Shown piece after piece: positions 23,591-35,386 of a stretch of DNA of 64,000 bases. This DNA is from Undaria pinnatifida. Its lineage: Eukaryota; Sar; Phaeophyceae; Laminariales; Alariaceae. The translations under genes and the position numbers were made by a program. The stretch lies in the NCBI GenBank assembly GCA_012845835.1, contig JABAKD010000013.1:14469665-14533664 (forward strand), in the 5' to 3' direction. Within the stretch, counting starts at the first letter, position 1, and each line of letters opens with the position of its first letter. Under the pieces are notes generated by a model, which saw only the letters and a program-made list of their open reading frames with translations, ran no database searches and was not told the origin of the DNA.

Positions 23591-23600
23591 ATAGTATGTA
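23591..23600. repeat. target site duplication, left
   Basis: ATAGTATGTA, identical to 35377-35386. Confidence 0.93.
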
Positions 23601-23896
23601 GGGGAGTGATAATGACACACATGTGGGTGTCATTTTTTTGACACACAGGGGACAAAAGAGCTCCATCCCCGGGTTTCCACCCTCTGGTTTATGCTTATCG
23701 GACACAGCATGCACCTCTCTTTGAGGTCGCAAAGAAGGCTGGATGTCGCGCCCTGTAGGCACGCCGACACCACCGCAGACAGCAGCACGTAGTCTGCACA
23801 TCACTGACCCTTCCATATCCAAGTCGTGAAGCCGGAGATGGAAAAATCGTCCAGAACGAGCTCCCTTCGTGGTGCCGTCACCACAGCAGCAGCAGC
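23601..23896 (+). repeat. MULE left terminal inverted repeat
   Basis: Begins GGGGAGTGATAATGACACAC and runs to the CAG repeat at 23884-23896. Compared with the reverse complement of 35081-35376 I find one difference (AAG against GAG near 23829). Near the tip, TGACAC and GTGTCA form a small hairpin. Confidence 0.95.
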
Positions 23897-24078
23897 CCCA
23901 GCACAGGCAGCACAGGCACCCGCGCCAGCCGCCAAAGATCTCCGCGGCGCATTGCTTTCCCGTCCGCAAAGGAGGTGTGTCTCATGTGTGCAGCGGCCCA
24001 TGTCAAATCTGTTCTAGCGTGGCGTTGCGAAGATTGCCGTCACTGCCGGTCAAGTTAGGCTCTCTGCGTGTTTCGCGT

Positions 24079-24290: not shown

Positions 24291-24496
24291 AGGTGCGCTC
24301 ATGTCTACAGATCGGTCCAAGTAGAACATATTCTTGGGATGGGTTTGTTTCGCAGGTGCACTGATGTCTTCAGATACAAAACGTCAAGGGAGATAGCAGA
24401 CAACTGCTGTAATCGTGTCGTCGTGTGTATGACGCCTCTACTCTTGGGGGGCCACCCCCACCTGGCCCCAATTGCGGCCCTGGTAAGTGCACGTTG

Positions 24497-24499
<3 letters not shown>

Positions 24500-24550
<51 letters not shown>
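24500..24550 (+). repeat. (CTG)n microsatellite
   Basis: About 17 CTG units; it would encode poly-Ala, poly-Leu or poly-Cys depending on frame. There is no sign that it is translated. Confidence 0.95.
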
Positions 24551-24731
24551 AAACGGCGTGTATCCTTCTACGACGGAACTACTCTAAATTCTTGTAGACG
24601 GTAGTGCCTACAGCAGTACAGCAGTACGGGCAGGGTGTAGAATGCACATAGGCAGGTGATGCTGAGACCATCCTGTAGGCGGGTGATGCTGAGACCATCC
24701 TGTCCTTTGTTGCTGCGCTGTTTCGGTCAGT

Positions 24732-25043
24732 GTTATCTCGGAGGCGAAGGCCTTAGAACTACTGCGGCAGCTCGTAGGTTTCTGCAATGGGGTGGTGGCA
24801 CCGAGACCTGCACGGGACACGGCGTCGGTGGTTGACGGAAATGGGGTACAGGGGAAACCGAAAACACCATTCGAGCGTGTGAAGGACTTTTCGAACACAT
24901 GCGCTGTGGAGAAAATTTTCGGAACGACATGCGGAGAGCTGCCAGCAGTGCCAAAGTCTCTTGTGGGCGAGAACAAAGACGACACGAAGCACGAGGTGCG
25001 GAGGGTTCACACTCCAATGCAGAATCTTTTCTTAGAGCTCACA
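24732..25043 (+). CDS. candidate 5' exon of the MULE gene
   Basis: An open frame reads VISEAKALELLRQLVGF, then VKDFSNTCAVEKIF and HEVRRVHTPMQNLFLEL, compact protein-like sequence without low complexity. It ends at ACA followed by GTGAGA, a fitting donor site (25044). A further frame in another phase (about 25090-25296, with GVYDTLLSAKNFRPP) ends at GTACGT, also donor-like. I could not join both to the OTU exon in phase, so the 5' structure and the start codon are unresolved. No domain is recognised. Confidence 0.45.
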
Positions 25044-25346: not shown

Positions 25347-26135
25347 AAGATTGCCCACGACTACTTTGGCACCATGGTTCTCCCGAAGGAGGTGCGCGAC
25401 GAGGGGTGGATAGCGAAGTTTGTCGCCGGCGACGGAAACTGTGCCTGGCGGGCCTTGGCGATGGGAATTTGGGGCTCTGATGTGTACTGGGCTCCACTAA
25501 AGCTTGCGGTCCTCGCATGGACCGCGGCAAACGCGGAGGAGCTTGTATCGGAGGGTGGCATCCTGTGGAATTGCACGCGTTACTACCCCCAAGCGGTCAT
25601 GAAGTACGCCAGATTTTCTAGCGAGGGAGACGTTCTGTCGACTCGCCAAGGCAACATCAAGATGGTTATTGCTTCCGTTGCTCTTTTCGGAGAACCCAAG
25701 CGCTGGGGGGGTGATTTGACTATGCTGATGGCCTCACAGGCGCTCCGACTACGAGTGAAGATGCTCGTCCCCATAGATAGGAAGAGCAGGAAGCAGTATG
25801 ATGCGCAGGGGGCAGCGCCTTTTCACGGGACGGGTAGGAAGGGCACGAATACGGTCGACGACTACCGCCATTCCCGAGACTTTCTGCCGGACGAAGCCCA
25901 GCTTGTGTACCGCGTAGCTGGAGCAGACGGCGGCGAGCGCCTTATCGAGGAGGTTGCCGTGGTGCTAACGCACGGCTGCCAGATAGCCCGTCAAAAGGAC
26001 TTGTCCGACATCCCCGAAGTTGGAAAGGATACAACGTTAGAAGCAGGGTGCCACTTCGGAACTTTTGCGAAGAGGGACGGCACGTTTCCCCCTTTTCCTG
26101 TGGTCGCGGTGTCACCCCCTCTGTTCCAGGTTCAA
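25347..26135 (+). other. exon encoding the OTU-like cysteine protease domain
   Basis: The 263-codon exon has VAGDGNCAWRALAMGIWG, which is the OTU family signature D-G-N-C followed by W/F-R-A (Asp codon at 25431, Cys at 25440). A possible catalytic His is in CHFGTF near 26051, by analogy to the N-H-Y/F ending of OTU domains. OTU enzymes cleave ubiquitin or related tags. In plants, some MULEs carry a different protease (ULP1-like), so a peptidase companion is not without parallel. Whether OTU and transposase are on one polypeptide depends on the splice model; the donor TTCAA-GTGAGT at 26136 and acceptor CCTCTAG at 26312 keep phase 0. Confidence 0.75.
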
Positions 26136-29100
26136 GTGAGTTACAGTTACAGTACCGTAGTATGTTTTTCGTCGTTTCTTTGCCGGCGAACACCACCTGG
26201 GTCGCAGGGTTGATGCGGGAACCGGACAGTAAAATGAGGGAGAACGGGTACAACGGACAATCCCATATCTATTTTGGTCGCTGAGCATTCATTAACGTTT
26301 CGCTCCCTCTAGGACGAGAAGTTCCAGGAAGCGTTCGATGACGAAGTCGCTGCCTACAACGCGAGGCGAGAGGCTACATTTGGCTCGACGACGGCAGAGA
26401 AAGTGCAATCCGCGGCGGAGAAGGCTGCGGACATGAGGCGACAGGCGAGGCTGGACTTAGTCGCAGAGAACTTGCGGCTGAAGCAGAACGAGTTGGCGGA
26501 TGCAAGGGTTAGGGAGGTAGAGAAACAGCGCGAAGAGAAGAAAGAGGAAGAGGAGAGGGAGAGGGAGCGTGAGAGGCAGGAGGGGGAGAGGAAAGGTGCT
26601 GAGGCAAAAGACGGAGATGGTGGGTTGGATGGTGCGGGCGGAGAAAATGTAGGTGGCGACGGGAAGGAAGCGGCGGCCGAAGGAACAGAAGAAGAGGGGA
26701 CTGGGTTGGGGACGGGAAGCACTGAGGGTGATGGGATGAAAGGTGAGATGGAGGACAAAAGTGGGGTGGAGGGTGGGGCGGAGACAGCAGCAGCACATGG
26801 CGAAGGGACGGCGGCTGGAGCGGGGGAGGATCCCGGGGGACAACCTGAGTGGTTCGGGGGGTCGGCGTGGGTTGGGGGGTCGGATTCCGACTCGTGCCGT
26901 GGTGAAGCACAAGCAGCCGAGTTTGATGCGATTCAGAAGAGGAAGGCCGAGGCCAGGGCCGCCGCAAAAAAGCACAAGACCAGATACCACAGGCTCAAGA
27001 AGGTGAGATGGAGTGCAAGGTCGCAGTCATCAGAGTCAAAGGGGGTTGTAACACATCCGCTTTATTGTCGCGAATACGACAGAGTGGTTTCCACGCGGTC
27101 AACTTTTGTGATTGACGTGGTCGCCATTACCATGTCATTTTGTTCGTTCGGTGTGCCGTCTGTTGTCCCAACCGAACAGGAAATCCACTTTGCCCAAACC
27201 CAGCAGAAGAAGCGTGGGCAAGACGCCATGTACAACTACGTCCCAGTAGTCTCAAACCTACGGCTGGAGCTTGCGAAGGGGAGAGTCGCAGCAGCTCAGG
27301 CCCGACGTAAATATGACCGTGCTGAGTCTGCGATACGCCGATTCATGCGTCAAGAAAGGAAGGTGTGTCCCAGGTAGTTTCCGTTTGGGGGCCCATGGTG
27401 CCTTGGCGTCAGCTGTCGAGCCACTTACAACGCACCGTCGCCAACAAGTCGGTTGTACGGACGCCCGGGCCTCGAATGCACAGGTAGTTGATCGAAGTCA
27501 AGCACAAGGTATTCAAGACCACGATGGTTAGCATGCTGTTGTATCGGAAATTTGCCGCGTCATACTGCGCCATGCCGGGTCATGAGACGTTGCGCTGTTC
27601 GTTGATGGCATCGTGTATTCTAGCATGTTTAGTCGACCGATGAAAATGGAAATTGTTCCATGCACACACCCCATCAACTGCGATACAATTTTTGACCCTT
27701 ACGTGGCCGAATTGTTGCAGTTGTGTGTCAGCGAGGGTGTATGGCACGAGGACGGTCGCAATAACAGCGGCGCCGAGAACCTCAGTAACAGTGACGACGA
27801 CAGCGACACTCAACACGACTGGTTCAGCGACGACGATCTGTCCTCGTGCGAAGGTGAGAGCAGTTTATACGTTATCAACGTCGGAACACGCGGGTCTGTA
27901 TCCATTCCTCTGTGTCAAACAGAGTCGTTATCAGGCGCCTTGGTGGCTTGTGCCGTGCGTCTTTGCGAACGTCCTGGCGATGCAGGCGATTTGGACGGGT
28001 TGGAGGACTCGGTACGCATGGCGGCGAGCGCAGCAGCGGCGGCGCGAAAGGAGGAGGCGGACCACGTCGAGATTCTTCGTGTTGCCGCAAAAGACGCGAA
28101 GAAAAAGTACAAGAGACTGTTGCGGGTAAGGGTTGATGGGAAAGTGGTGTGAGGTAGGACGGTGCCTTCCGCCAGCATTCGCGAAGTTTCGGCGCACTTC
28201 CCCGCTCGGGGCATTTTGTTTGCTGATCGAAACGAGTGTGTCTGTCGCCTGACGCAGGAGTCCGGTATTGCAAATGGGCACGAGGAGAGCGAGGAGGAGG
28301 ACGACGGGGGGGAGGGGGTGGACAGAGCTAATCGGGAGAACTCCATCGACCTGGCCCGAGCTGCGAAAACTGCGGCGATCAAAGCCTGGAAGACGTACAA
28401 GAAGGCGCAGGTAGCCTCACGGAAGGTGGGGGCCGCGGATCCACGCGTGGGTTCAGAAACCTAACCATCTGGGACACATTCGCCGTGTTTGTGGACTATT
28501 CGAGCATGTCCTCTGCAGCATGTGGACGAGACGTCTGTCATACGTACCTGCATGCGGTTTCGCGCCCAAGGAACGTTGTTCTGTGTCTTATGGTCACAGT
28601 GTTTAGGGTTGAACAGGACAGCTTCTCCCCTGTTTCGTCGTTTGTCCGCACGTGTTGCAGATTTATCAGGCCTCCAACCCCACGGACATTGAAATTAATG
28701 ACGGTGGCAACGACTCGAGGTGGAAGGACGCCAGCGACGACGACGTCGAATATGGGTCCGATAGTTGGAGTGGGTGGGAGAGTGAAGACGATGAAGAGGG
28801 TGAGTAGAGGGTACAATGGCCGTACATCATCACACGATAGCCGCTGTTTCCCCGTTCGTCGGTCTCATGCGGTCTCATGCGGCTACCGAGGGTGGGATGT
28901 CGAAGACCACGCGAGCGATTGCGCATGAGCACCGCGCCCAGGACGTGCTTTAGGTTGGGCGAAACCGGTGAAGGAAAATATGTCGAAGGGTGTGCGGTTG
29001 CCGACCTCAGTCAGTGTTACCCCCGGATTGATGGTTTCGTTTCGATCACTTGGAAACAATCAACTAAACAGCCATTCAACGGATATTACGAGGGTAGAGC

Positions 29101-32100
29101 AATGGCATGCTTATATCTTGCTCGCTCTTTGACGCAGATGAAAACGAGGAGACCCCTACGGAAGAGCCGTTAAAGATCGAGTCTGGGTACGCGTTCTCCG
29201 TTCTTGACGATGCCGAATCTACCTGGGAAATTATGATCCGCAGGATCAAGGCGGAGCTTCGACGCCAGGGTTTCACCGGAAATAAGTCCACAATCAAAGG
29301 AGACCCGGTGCGTAAAAAGAACGACAACAAATCGCGTGTTTGCCCACCCTTGTGCCAGTAGCATCCCTCTCGAATCCGGATCTCGTCAGAGTAGACAACG
29401 GCATTCTCACACCAGCACGTACCACCCTAAACAGATCGCAGGGAAAGGTAGCCGACCGAGCCGGATTACGTTGAGGTGCGCCGCTTATGGGAGGGCGAGA
29501 ACCTCGAAGTTGCCGGCGCCAAGGAGAACATCATGGTCGGCGAAGGCAAGTATTTCTCGATGTAACCGAGATGCCATGTCATCCGGAATGTTCCGTCCAA
29601 GCTTGGAGCGTGTTTTTATTCGCGATTGTCACTCGTGCCCTCTGACCGGCCTTCTGTTGTGCCTGTCTCTTGACCGCGATTGTTCCGCCGTGCAGTGCGA
29701 GTGTGACTTTCGCGTGGCTGTCGCCTGGAACACCAAAGACCCACCGACAATCACGAAGGTAAATACGACCCGACCGTGAATTGGTCTGTGTAGACGAAGA
29801 TGTGGCGAGGAAGAGATTGGCACCTCGAAGTATATGGAGCTGTACACAGAATAGTGTGGGACGATGTCCGCCCTCACTTGTGCCCTCCCGTCCATTGTTT
29901 TCTTCAGGTCCATCTTGAGCACGCTGCCGCCTGTGATATGGATTCTCGCGCGTCCCAACTCGAGCAAGAGAACTTGGTCCCTGTGGATGAGATTGAAAAG
30001 CGTTGCATGGGTCAAATCCGCAAGATGACGTTGGGGGGGGTGAGACCACACCTCATCTACCGCTGCGTTGCGGAGGAAATGAAGCCGTACAAGCTCGGCC
30101 CGCAGGGTGCACGAAAGGTGTGAACACGGTGAACCGGTCATTACGGTACCTCTGAAAGTTACGGTTTATTTTTGGTTGCCTGTGTCGGCGTCGGTCCCCT
30201 CGTTCCGATTCAAAATGTCACTACTGGCGTAGAGACATACCACAACACCCTTCGTACTTTGCTGAAGGGCGAGCGGTGAATCGAACCCCCGCCTCCTCAG
30301 CATCTTGTCTACCTTCGCCTCGGTTAGATAGTATCCTCAACGGGTGTTTCATATGACTTCCGTCTATGCTTTTGCGCGTAGGTTGATGTCACGAAATCGG
30401 TTGTGTGATTGCAACAACTACACAGTAGCGTCCTCCTCGCCTTTGTCCTCCTGTGTCCCACGCAGGTGCGCAATTTGTCGGCGAAGGTGCTACGTGGGCG
30501 CTGGGCATCGGGCGAAGACGCTCTCAACCTTGTGGCGGAGCTGGAAAGAGGACCGCAGACCGTGAAGTGGGATGTTGATGCCGACCAGGTGCTACGGTCC
30601 ATCATGTGGGCTTCACCCGAACAAGTTATGCTGGCAAGAACCTATGGCGGTGTTGTTATCCAGGACAATACGTGTCTCACCAACAGGTGAGGAGGGTGTG
30701 GAAGTCTTCAATTGCCTCCTACCCTCCCATTGATGTGACGACGTTGTTCGTACGTGTGAGGGCTTCGTCCAGTAGTAAAAGATGCCTTTCCTCCGGATCG
30801 GCAATCATTGCCGTGCAAACGATGACGACCCACCCACGTACACTGCATTTTCGACAGGTACGACTTCAAGCTGTGTTTGTATGTGGGCGTCGACTCTGAG
30901 AATAAGACCATCGTTTTCGCCCAGGGTTTTCTCGGCAACGAACAAAGCGAAACATTCGACTTCGCAAACCAGTTCTTCCTGGAGATTTGCGGGGGCCACC
31001 CGAAGGTGAGCTTGTCTTCACGTTTTTTTTGTATGATGAATGAATGGATCGCGGAGCCTACTGAGTAGTTCGGGTTTGCTTCGGTGTCAACGGTGTTGCT
31101 CAATCGCCGTCATCACGTATATTATGTTCACAGCGCCAACCTCCCACGGCCGTCCTTAGGTAATCATCACAGATGCCGACGGAGCAATGACGAGTTCGAT
31201 CTCGACGCTTCTTCCTCACACGAAGCACTTGTACTGCTCCTGGCACATCTGTAAGAACATCAAGAAGCATTGTATGGGGGCCTTGCAAAAAGCAGGATGC
31301 ACGGAATTGCTCCGGCGGTTCACGGCGGCTTCCTATGCGACATCGACTGAGGTGGGAAGATCGCAGTACCAATGGAACAGGGTTTTACTTGGGTTCTTTT
31401 TTTTTGCGCGCCTGCCTTGAATGAAATGGAGACTCATGTTGTTGTGAAAGCAGTTTGTCGCGTCTGTTCTCCAGGAGCTTACTGCATGTTTTTCTTTTTT
31501 TCCCGTCTCCAGGCCTTTGATCGCGTGTGGGAGGGCGTGAAGCAGCTCGTGAAGGGCACAGCGTGTGAAAAATACGTCAACGAGCACCTACACAGGTGAG
31601 GGCGCTTCTGCACGCCTTTTTGTCTTCGGTTTTAATTTGCGTAGGCGACCCTTTGGACAACCTAGTGTATATGTGGCCGCTTGTCGTAACACTTGGTCGC
31701 CGCGAAGAACTCTTCCTCTTTCCAACGAAGCCTTTGACATACCGTCCCTGGCGCCTTCTCGCCTCGCACGTGCCGTTCGCAGCATACGCACGTATTGGGC
31801 GCGCTGTTTTTTCCCGACAACCATGACCTTGGGTATGACAGCCACTCAGCGCGTTGAGGGTATTTTCAGCGCGATAAAGAACGGCCGGAACCTGAAGAGA
31901 AACTCGACGTTTCGTCAAGTGAGGCAGAGAGTCGAACAAGTCGCGGAAGACCTCGCCCTGGCATCCCGAATGTAAGTGACACAACGTCCCCACCGGGTTT
32001 TCGCTCCATTGCTCGTTTGGTGTGGTACTGCGCACGGCGTGTCGGTAGTTTCATATCAACCCCGGGCAGGAACGATGCTCTGAAGTCTTCGTTTTTGGCG

Positions 32101-33430
32101 CCCTTTTTGGGCACATTTTGTTCGTCTGCATTGTACACGTACGGCCGTTGCGAATAATGCTGACAGGCACCTTTCGACAACGTCCGTACTGCAGGCAAAG
32201 CACCAAACGCGCTTCTTTGGGGAAAGCTCACGTCGAAAACGACATCAAGAGATCGCTTGAACCAGTCCTAACAGCGTACGAGAAAGTTGGAGCCAGTAAG
32301 TACGCAGCGGAGGTAAGCTCTATTCTTGTGTGTTGCCGCGGCCGTGTCACTTTGACGAGCATTTGCTGCGGTTGGCACACGCTTTTGTGACGCGAATGTC
32401 AGACGCTGTCCGATGCTCCCCTGGCGCGACCGGTTGACCGGTTGTGTCCTTGCGCTCACCCCCGCATCCTTTTCGGACTTGCTCCTATTTATCTCGACAG
32501 GAAGTACTGGCCGAAATGTTAGCAAGCTCGGCGTACGAAACAAGCGTTTTGGTGGAGGGGCGTGGATCGATGCAGTTACTACAAAATCTGGCGGCGCGCT
32601 CCGCGGACGACGTCAGCGGATCATCTGACGACGATATGTGCATCGACGTTGAAGGGGACGACGTGTGTTGCCAGGTTCCTGAAGAGGTATTCCAGGAAAG
32701 GGGGGAACCTGATATCACTATGTTTGGCACCACATCCTTGGTTTCTTTTTATCGTCTTGTTGCGGGAGTGGAAGTTGATTCCATAGTGAAAGTTTTGTAC
32801 AAACACAAAGCTGACCGAAAAGTAGGACACCTCGTTGTCATAGGCCCTGGTGGCTTTCAACTGTGCACGTGCTTGCAGATACTGAGGCGAGGGCTGCAAT
32901 GCAGGCACGTTCTCGCCGCGCTTGTCACGCACCTAAAACGTGGCAAAGAGTTCAAAGGAGAATCCATACACCCACGGTGGCGTTCCTCTTCAGAGCATTG
33001 GAGCCTGGATAAAGCGGGCTTGGGGAAGTTTGACGAGGATGGGGGTGGGTCTTACAATGGCGGGTTCACTGGTGACTGGGACGGGCCTGCTGATTTCGGA
33101 GACGCCAGCACTGAAGAAGCGGCACCCGACCGTATGCTGTCTGTCATCAGAGGTAGGACGTTCGCGAATATCATGGAGCTTTGCACAAGGGCCGCTCGCA
33201 AGTACACCGACAACATGACGAAGGACACTGGACCTGGCGAGATGGGGATGTTCAGCGAACTGGGCCGCGCCGTTGATGCATGGGCCCGGCGAGGCGAGAG
33301 TAACGTTTCAGAGACTTGGAGCGGAATACGAGACCCTCCGCTCCAGTTGACAAGAAATAGGAAGCAGACTCGGACGAAGGATTGCACGGAGAGTGGCAGG
33401 GGGAGCGCGAAAAGGGTAAAGAAGGAATAG
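25347..33430 (+). CDS. OTU-MULE transposase, about 18 exons
   Basis: Proposed exons: 25347-26135, 26313-27002, 27180-27362, 27721-27853, 27923-28125, 28258-28410, 28661-28799, 29138-29307, one near 29452-29545, 29696-29758, 29908-30117, 30466-30686, 30858-31005, 31160-31351, 31513-31595, 31783-31971, 32195-32312 and 32501-33430. Nearly every junction has GT..AG with donors such as GTGAGT or GTAAGT, and phases agree except around 29452-29545, where the donor may be GCAAGT or a small exon is missed. Order of domains: OTU-like protease, acidic coiled coil, CxC/H..C zinc module, MULE DDE core, SWIM finger, basic tail. The product should bind the TIRs and catalyse transposition in the nucleus. The OTU part may remove ubiquitin-like tags. 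No in-frame stop breaks the assembled exons. This is a hand-made model without transcript support. Confidence 0.8.
26313..28799 (+). other. exons encoding an acidic, Glu-rich linker
   Basis: The first exon gives heptad-like, highly charged sequence (VREVEKQREEKKEEEERER), then a Gly/Glu-rich stretch. Later exons give Asp/Ser-rich blocks (NSDDDSDTQHDW, WESEDDEE) and Ala-rich helical pieces that each end in a K/A-K-K-Y-K-like motif (AKKHKTRYHRLKK, AAKDAKKKYKRLLR, AIKAWKTYKKAQ). These similar exon ends suggest exon duplication. Probably flexible and not conserved. Confidence 0.55.
29452..30117 (+). other. exons encoding the N-terminal zinc module of the transposase
   Basis: The exon at 29696 reads CECDFRVAVAW, and the next gives VHLEHAAAC. 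C-x-C ... H-x-C-type spacing (two Cys, then His and Cys after a beta-strand-like stretch with ITK) is the WRKY-GCM1-like DNA-binding module found before MULE cores. The exon before it (about 29452-29545, with DYVEVRRLWEGENLEVAG) seems to belong to the same domain, but its donor is uncertain. Confidence 0.65.
30270..30345 (-). other. tRNA-like sequence inside an intron of the MULE gene
   Basis: On the minus strand, GGGGGTTCGATTCACCGC followed by TCGCCC resembles the T arm and 3' acceptor side of a tRNA. The 5' side (CTATCTAACCGAGGCG) is a weak A box, and no matching acceptor strand is found. Probably a tRNA-derived relic. Confidence 0.35.
30466..31971 (+). other. exons encoding the MULE DDE catalytic core
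   Basis: Five exons contain the three acidic residues of the MULE transposase domain: GGVVIQDNTCLTNR (Asp at 30664-30666), VIITDADGAMTSS (Asp at 31172-31174), and TLGMTATQRVEGIFSAIK (Glu at 31856-31858). Between the second and third lies LYCSWHICKNIKKHC, the C/W-H helix typical of the Mutator superfamily. The acceptors and donors keep phase (2, 0, 0, 2, 2), which supports the exon model. Confidence 0.88.
32501..33430 (+). other. last exon: SWIM zinc finger and basic tail
   Basis: The 310-codon exon has FQLCTCLQILRRGLQCRHVL, that is C-x-C-x9-C-x-H, the SWIM finger that follows the DDE core in most MULE and FAR1-type proteins (Cys at 32864 and 32870, Cys at 32900, His at 32906). The tail ends with SGRGSAKRVKKE and a TAG at 33428. 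The last basic residues could act as a nuclear localisation signal. Confidence 0.85.
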
Positions 33431-33785: not shown

Positions 33786-35195
33786 GGTCTCGAACCCCTG
33801 AACGGAGATATCTAGGGTCAACAACAATGCATAGATTGCGTCCGCTGTCTATCGTGGTGATGGCGTGCCAGCAACGCGCTTGATCTGCCTCGTTCCTTAT
33901 TTCATCTTTGCGTCCTGGTAGTGGTTGTACTTCGTGACACCAGTGCTGCTGTTTGCTGCTGCGCCTGTGAAGGTGTCTCAAACTAAGCTCTATCTCCACG
34001 TTTTCTCCATCATGAACGCCAAACGTCGGATATCTGACGGTCATAACCATCTAGCCTAGCTGCTACTATCTGTGGAGGTGATTGCGTGCAGGCAGCATGT
34101 TTGATCTGCGTCTCCGCCGCGGAGATCTTTGGTGGCTGGCGCGGGTGCCTATGCTGCTGCTGCTCTGATGACGACACCACGAAGGGAGCTCGTTCTCGAC
34201 GATTTTTTCATCTCCGGCTCCACGACTTGGATATGGAAGGGTCAGTGATGTGCAGACTACGTGCTGATTTGTCGGTCTCGAACCCCTAAACGGAGATATC
34301 TAGGGCTATCTAGGGTCAGCAACAATGCATAGATTCAATGCATAGATTGCGTCCGCTGTCTATCGTCATAGCGTGCCAGCAACGCGCTTGATCTGCCTCG
34401 TTCCTTCTTTCATCTTTGCGTGCTGGTGGTTGTACTACGGGGCACTAGTAGTGCTGCTGTTTGCTGCTGCGCCTGTGAAGGTATCATCTCAAACTAAGCT
34501 CTATCTCCGCGTTTTCTCCATCATGAACGCCAAAAGTCGGATATGTGACGGTGATAAACATCTAGCCTAGCTGCTGCTCTCTGTTGAGGTGACTGCGTGC
34601 GGCAGGCAGCATGTTTGATCTGCGTGCTGCTGCTGCTCTGATGACGGCACCACGAAGGGAGCTCGTTCTCGACGATTTTTCCATCTCTGGCTCCACGACT
34701 TGGATATGGAAAGGTCAGTGATGTGCAGACTACGTGCTGATTTGTCGGTCTCGAACCCCTAAACGGAGATATGTAGGATCAGCAACAATGCATAGATTGC
34801 GTCCGCTATCTATCGTGGTGATGGCGTGCCAGCAACGCGCTTGATCTGCCTCGTTCCTTCTTTCATCTTTGCGTGCTGGTGGTTGTACTACGGGGCATCA
34901 GTGGCCCGGCATCAGTGCTGCTGTTTGCTGCTGCGCCTGTGAAGGTGTCTCAAACTAAGCTCTATGTCCACGTTTTCTCCATCATGATCGCCAACAGTCG
35001 GATATCTGACGGTGATAAAGATCTATCCTACCTGCTGCTATCTGTGGTGATTGAGTGCAGGCAGCATGTTTGATCTGCGTGCTGCTGCTGCTGTGGTGAC
35101 GGCACCACGAAGGGAGCTCGTTCTGGACGATTTTTCCATCTCCGGCTCCACGACTTGGATATGGAAGGGTCAGTGATGTGCAGACTACGTGCTGC
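33786..35195 (+). repeat. tandem array of about 480-bp units built on the TIR
   Basis: GGTCTCGAACCCCT-AACGGAG recurs at 33786, 34274 and 34747 (spacings 488 and 473). Each unit ends with the inner 115-150 bp of the right TIR (GGCACCACGAAGGGAGCTCG to CAGACTACGTGCTG), and the last unit runs straight into the true TIR. The first unit also keeps GCCGCGGAGATCTTTGG, which matches the left subterminal sequence near 23930-23955 in reverse. So the TIR was once longer and was partly amplified. Confidence 0.9.
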
Positions 35196-35376
35196 TGTCT
35201 GCGGTGGTGTCGGCGTGCCTACAGGGCGCGACATCCAGCCTTCTTTGCGACCTCAAAGAGAGGTGCATGCTGTGTCCGATAAGCATAAACCAGAGGGTGG
35301 AAACCCGGGGATGGAGCTCTTTTGTCCCCTGTGTGTCAAAAAAATGACACCCACATGTGTGTCATTATCACTCCCC
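35081..35376 (-). repeat. MULE right terminal inverted repeat
   Basis: Reverse complement of 23601-23896 with one difference. It ends GTGTGTCATTATCACTCCCC. Confidence 0.95.
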
Positions 35377-35386
35377 ATAGTATGTA
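35377..35386. repeat. target site duplication, right
   Basis: ATAGTATGTA, identical to 23591-23600. Confidence 0.93.

What the first reader, a model, noticed from the sequence alone, without database searches (positions are those of the whole stretch)
25347..33430. OTU protease domain joined to a MULE transposase
A DGNC-type OTU signature (Asp 25431, Cys 25440) precedes, in phase-compatible exons, a complete MULE core (zinc module, DDE, SWIM). ULP1-type proteases are known in some plant MULEs, but an OTU fused to the transposase is not something I know as described. A deubiquitinase-like domain might protect the transposase from degradation or act on chromatin marks.
Basis: partly seen in the sequence, partly recalled or inferred. 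Interest (0 to 1): 0.9.

Follow-up and report, generated by a model that had tools for sequence, protein, structure and literature searches.

The report
Jumping gene carrying a deubiquitinase-like domain
A recently mobile brown-alga DNA transposon encodes what looks like one long protein with an OTU (ubiquitin-cutting type) protease domain at its front and a Mutator-type transposase at its back; whether the protease part works is not known.

The parts
23591..23600 (.). target-site duplication, left copy (10 bp)
   Evidence: identical to 35377-35386
23601..23896 (+). left terminal inverted repeat
   Evidence: 296 nt, given as 100% complementary to 35081-35376; a script comparing strictly from the ends found 228 nt before the first mismatch, so the two disagree slightly
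23839..23973 (+). annotated first exon, start codon inside the TIR (from public model P0001, a model of another copy; boundaries read off by eye)
   Evidence: P0001; no transcript seen
24731..24995 (+). annotated second exon, ~89 aa, function unknown
   Evidence: P0001, boundaries by eye; a similar stretch precedes the OTU in Pylaiella P0019 (by eye)
25350..26135 (+). OTU exon (OTU domain from Met 25374); Asp 25431, Cys 25440, candidate His 26052
   Evidence: start 25350 from P0001
26313..29475 (+). linker exons (26313-27002, 27180-27362, 27721-27853, 27923-28125, 28258-28425, 28661-28799, 29138-29307, 29452-29475), acidic and charged; the last is uncertain
   Evidence: three linker ORFs tested gave no Pfam match at E up to 1
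29696..30117 (+). zinc module exons (29696-29758, 29908-30117), C-x-C ... H-x2-H-x3-C
   Evidence: exon phases; both exons found in lineage B locus L062
30466..31971 (+). MULE DDE domain exons; Asp 30664, Asp 31172, Glu 31856; CxxH at 31235-31246
   Evidence: Pfam MULE; D, D and E conserved in L062 and L049; roles of the residues recalled
32195..33430 (+). last two exons (32195-32312, 32501-33430) with SWIM CxC...CxH at 32864-32908 and stop
35081..35376 (-). right terminal inverted repeat
35377..35386 (.). target-site duplication, right copy

Best explanation
This is a recently mobile, probably autonomous Mutator-like (MULE) transposon whose transposase is made as one large protein with an N-terminal OTU cysteine-protease domain. 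The C-terminal part (zinc module, DDE RNase-H core, SWIM) recognises the inverted repeats and cuts and joins DNA, leaving 10-bp target duplications (domains shown by homology, duplications shown, biochemistry inferred). The OTU most likely removes ubiquitin or a ubiquitin-like tag from the transposase itself or from proteins at the donor or target DNA, so that the transposase persists or repair is favoured (inferred). Graded belief: MULE element with an OTU-fold domain in the same frame 0.93; one polypeptide 0.75; catalytically active OTU 0.6; cis-protection of the transposase as its main role 0.35.
Against: No transcript or protein evidence. The residue two after the candidate His is G, S or A in 9 of 9 readable A1 members, where many OTUs have D or N (recalled; of four other OTUs of this genome two read HYD and one HYV); in A2 one row, P0017, has HRL instead of HF. 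Within lineages dN/dS is 0.28-1.14, on very few changes. Deletion derivatives without the DDE core but with OTU and the last exon exist in two copies in A (shared junction) and, by spacing, two in C, so keeping the OTU does not prove use by the transposase. Two A-family loci have MULE and last exon with no OTU match upstream. One lineage-B OTU frame has a TGA.
Confidence: 0.6

Rival explanations
1. Two neighbouring genes in one element (an OTU gene and a transposase gene), as MuDR carries mudrA and mudrB (recalled); the open phase is coincidental or reflects occasional read-through.
For: Long low-complexity acidic linker with the least certain splicing; the public model P0001 splices it differently from mine.
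Against: No in-frame stop across the joined exons; automated models of A and B copies both join OTU and MULE.
Confidence: 0.2
2. The OTU is a captured host fragment carried as cargo with no role (Pack-MULE-like).
For: MULEs capture gene pieces (PMC6431247 passages; PMC13317346 passages). A cluster of related OTU genes exists on C26. Deletion derivatives keep it.
Against: Kept in three lineages, motif residues intact, dN below dS between lineages; Pylaiella homologues of the OTU at 49-54%, not seen linked to a transposase.
Confidence: 0.1
3. The OTU has lost protease activity and serves as a ubiquitin-binding or multimerisation part of the transposase.
For: G/S/A two after the His in 9 of 9 readable A1 members.
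Against: DGNC and His are kept; some OTUs place the acid elsewhere (recalled, A20-type).
Confidence: 0.2
4. A domesticated host gene, not a transposon.
For: Intact multi-exon gene.
Against: TIRs, TSDs, 22 near-identical OTU-exon copies on many contigs.
Confidence: 0.02

Closest known systems
MULEs with Ulp1 (plants: Kaonashi/KIU in Arabidopsis, melon, rice, maize, grape; also hydra and lancelet)
   Same: MULE element carrying a ubiquitin-like-protein protease (PMC2836005 and PMC13317346, passages)
   Different: Ulp1, not OTU. In Arabidopsis the Ulp1 is in a separate gene (VANC/KIU) of non-TIR MULEs; a figure legend speaks of Ulp1 in Mutator transposases, so fusion as such may be shared. Here OTU is N-terminal and the element has long TIRs
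Ginger1 DNA transposons
   Same: DDE transposase with an OTU or Ulp1 domain (PMC2836005, abstract and passages)
   Different: Gypsy-integrase-type transposase with the protease at the C-terminus; here MULE-type with OTU at the N-terminus
Helitrons/Helentrons with OTU
   Same: Transposon protein with OTU (PMC6431247 passage); this genome has OTU next to PIF1 helicase at L004
   Different: Rolling-circle helicase; the L004 OTU matches PF02338 well (1.7e-8), unlike this one
Nairovirus OTU proteases and human OTUD3
   Same: Best matches among solved sequences and folds
   Different: Low identity in the structural alignments (11-19% in the top rows); long low-confidence insertions here (residues 151-162, 200-225)
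MuDR and other TIR-MULEs
   Same: Long TIRs, DDE and SWIM domains (recalled for MuDR)
   Different: No OTU recalled in MuDR

Membership tests
Mutator-like elements (MULE) | MULE DDE domain (PF10551) | tested here: met
   2.7e-18 on P0001; 29.7 bits (cut-off 27.6) on window 31160-31420
Mutator-like elements (MULE) | D, D, E residues and CxxH between the second D and E (roles recalled) | tested here: met
   present in the window model and L062; L049 has D, D, E but CLWD in place of CxxH
Mutator-like elements (MULE) | SWIM finger | tested here: met
   CxC...CxH present; Pfam under cut-off in the window exon (16.5 of 19.6 bits), over it in P0002
Mutator-like elements (MULE) | long TIRs and a TSD of about 9-10 bp (recalled) | tested here: met
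   296-nt TIR; 10-bp TSD perfect in 6 of 8 copies with both ends read
OTU superfamily | sequence-profile relation to OTU | tested here: met
   the window exon alone is not significant
OTU superfamily | OTU fold | tested here: met
   predicted model only, mean pLDDT 74
OTU superfamily | catalytic Cys and His | tested here: met
   Cys in 11 of 11, His in 9 of 9 readable
OTU superfamily | D/N two residues after His (common, not universal; recalled, so not used to decide membership) | tested here: not met
   G/S/A in 9 of 9 readable A1 members
OTU superfamily | ubiquitin or ubiquitin-like protease activity | not testable with these tools
   needs protein
Ulp1-MULE (KIU) | Ulp1 (C48) domain | tested here: not met
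   no such Pfam match at E up to 1 in P0001-P0003 or in the eight window segments tested
Ginger1 | Gypsy-integrase-type transposase | tested here: not met
   Pfam gives MULE, no integrase match in P0001-P0003
Helentron | Rep/PIF1 helicase | tested here: not met
   no helicase match in P0001-P0003

The most novel reading that the evidence does not exclude
A transposase with its own built-in, active deubiquitinase: the OTU strips ubiquitin from the transposase or from chromatin and repair proteins at cut ends, giving a MULE line in brown algae a way round host control in a lineage reported to lack DNA methylation and PRC2 (PMC13076208, abstract and passage); MULEs would then have recruited OTU independently of Ginger1 and Helitrons.
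Probability: 0.35. Interest if true: 0.75.

Novelty: new variant of a known kind. Interest (0 to 1): 0.55.

Why it matters
Ubiquitin-family proteases are reported in at least three kinds of transposon (Ginger1, Helitrons, MULEs; PMC2836005 passages), and what they do there is unsettled. A recently mobile, in-frame, N-terminal fusion with several near-identical open copies gives a direct way to ask: remove the OTU and measure transposase stability and excision.

Tried and rejected
Chance motif: rejected (family profile, fold, conservation). Domesticated gene: rejected (TSDs, copies). Calmodulin chains fill most of the A1 profile's PDB list below the viral OTUs (best 5.3e-5, profile 159-220); I set them aside as likely spurious because they cover a charged loop and the single-sequence search does not list them, but I did not test this further. 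OTU loss in lineage C: many C-type last exons have no OTU match within 15 kb. The one read in depth (C33, L063+L066) shows no match to the OTU, zinc module or first-Asp exons, so it looks like a deletion derivative; in L064 and L065 the 3.5 kb where the OTU was expected hold none; L060 keeps only the OTU's last third. The other OTU-less C loci were not read. Protein searches with the transposase region and with P0002's OTU region listed Undaria models only, 3 and 2 (the first scored only the 7992 candidates sharing most words). The linker was compared with Pfam alone, in part. No eukaryote genome other than this one could be searched, so spread rests on protein hits: Pylaiella littoralis P0013 and P0019, whose link to a transposase was not seen. 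From memory, and from no call, some plant FAR1-like gene models may pair MULE with OTU; if so the pairing is less new.

Papers: no report of OTU in a MULE was seen in searches (open PMC text only; one search was on Undaria genomes). Listings only, except nine papers in which I asked for matching passages: PMC6431247, PMC6875170, PMC6446971 (no occurrence of the terms asked), PMC2836005, PMC12477816, PMC10799480, PMC8599713, PMC13317346, PMC13076208. Repbase was not available.

Full report
What is there. The exon at 25374-26135 encodes 254 residues with DGNC (Asp 25431, Cys 25440) near the start and a candidate His at 26052. From it 18 exons can be joined in one frame to the stop at 33430, 1541 aa. 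Order: OTU domain, charged linker, zinc module, MULE DDE domain, SWIM. One linker exon (29452-29475) is my choice among weak options; the zinc exon 29696-29758 is supported by lineage B, whose locus L062 has its counterpart. A public gene model, P0001 (1497 aa, jgi Undpi1 HiC_scaffold_23.g10312), is listed as 100% identical over residues 900-1420 (by eye one residue there and one later differ, so it is a model of another copy) and also joins OTU and MULE; it has two further upstream exons, the first beginning inside the left TIR, and skips part of the linker. The organism is inferred from that name; the genome itself is unnamed (511 Mb in 68 contigs).

It is a transposon. Inverted arms 23601-23896 and 35081-35376 are 296 nt and given as 100% complementary (counting strictly from the ends my script stopped at 228 nt). 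The element is 11,776 bp, flanked by ATAGTATGTA on both sides. Including the window, 8 copies had both ends read: 6 have perfect 10-bp duplications of differing sequence, L029 and L038 do not. The 5 full-length ones aligned are 99.75-99.93% identical to the window; L048 is full length but for its first bases (99.81%); L038 has an internal deletion, L032 contains 500 N, L034 and L039 match only the first 7,920 and 10,229 nt. In 7 of the 10 fetched copies all 18 exons are found with no length change and at most 6 substitutions, and joined as in the window they read 1541 codons with only the final stop and AG/GT at the internal boundaries; L032, L034 and L038 miss exons. This is a family that moved recently and keeps several open copies.

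The join is conserved. Searching the genome with the OTU exon lists 48 matches, 22 of them full length and ~100% identical in protein; of the 20 laid as loci, window included, 16 are identical in DNA and 4 differ at one base. Of the 22, 18 have both the MULE exon and the last exon downstream, 2 have only the last exon (deletion derivatives sharing one junction), 1 only the MULE exon and 1 neither (from the tables). Two loci (C63, C30:3507697) have MULE and last exon but no OTU match upstream; they were not read. Lineage B (OTU 38-39%): 7 of 7 OTU exons have a last exon 7.1-7.2 kb away and a MULE exon hit, one partial; one of the seven has a TGA in its OTU frame. A related locus on C28 (39%) has a last exon 7.5 kb away; no MULE exon match was listed there. 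Lineage C (47%): L049 holds the parts in order; the two other C OTU loci have a last exon 1.66-1.67 kb away, and the one read, L059, is a deletion derivative. Many C-type last exons have no OTU nearby; C33, read in depth, shows no zinc module or first Asp either. Thus in the loci read, a complete transposase came with an OTU, but not every locus was read. dN/dS between lineages for the OTU exon is 0.14-0.53 with dS mostly saturated; within lineages it is 0.28-1.14 on a handful of changes.

Spread and origin. A profile search of predicted proteins gave 18 hits at E up to 0.01, among them two Pylaiella littoralis proteins, 54% and 49% identical in that listing; most others are unnamed metagenome or archive contigs. 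P0019 has an upstream stretch resembling the annotated second exon here (by eye). A separate cluster of OTU-like genes at C26:4.49-4.75 Mb (29-31% over the long matches) shows no MULE match in the 6 kb read (L050); it could be the source or a by-product. L004 shows that a helicase-type transposon protein in this genome bears an OTU too.

How it works. DDE transposition with 10-bp duplications is well supported. The OTU's role is inferred: cis-deubiquitination of the transposase, or local action on chromatin or repair proteins; the Ginger1 authors proposed a role of OTU and Ulp1 in activating repair factors (PMC2836005 passage). In Arabidopsis, Ulp1-bearing VANC/KIU genes sit in MULEs whose proteins direct hypomethylation of related elements, with the Ulp1's function unknown (PMC13317346 passages); brown algae are reported to have lost DNA methylation and PRC2 (PMC13076208 abstract and passage), so that target is unlikely here.

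Novelty. OTU in Ginger1 and Helitrons and Ulp1 in MULEs are in print. I found no report of OTU in a MULE in the searches listed under Tried and rejected, which cover open PMC text only. I therefore call it a new variant of a known kind.

Noticed in passing
L050 (C26:4617000-4623000) and C26:4.49-4.75 Mb: Cluster of OTU-like genes, 29-31% identical to the window OTU over the long matches, one in a 930-aa open frame with a low-complexity tail and no Pfam match at 0.01; dN/dS among four of them 0.20-0.30. Possible source of, or descendant from, the transposon OTU.
   Followed up: partly
L004 (C19:10723995-10727327); similar frame at L005: PF02338 OTU after a PIF1 helicase in one open frame, Helitron-like; one search lists further PF02338 hits in open frames of 1,600-1,725 residues, not examined for helicase.
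   Followed up: partly
L026 and L061; L059: Deletion derivatives keeping the OTU and the last exon without the DDE core arose in lineages A and C; the A type has an inverted copy of 26445-26729 at its junction, shared by two loci.
   Followed up: partly
window 34153-34266 and 34626-34739: Two subterminal partial copies (114 nt, 95%) of the TIR's inner part, in repeated sequence before the right TIR.
   Followed up: no
window about 24496-24551: GCT trinucleotide run inside the element between the TIR and the annotated second exon.
   Followed up: no
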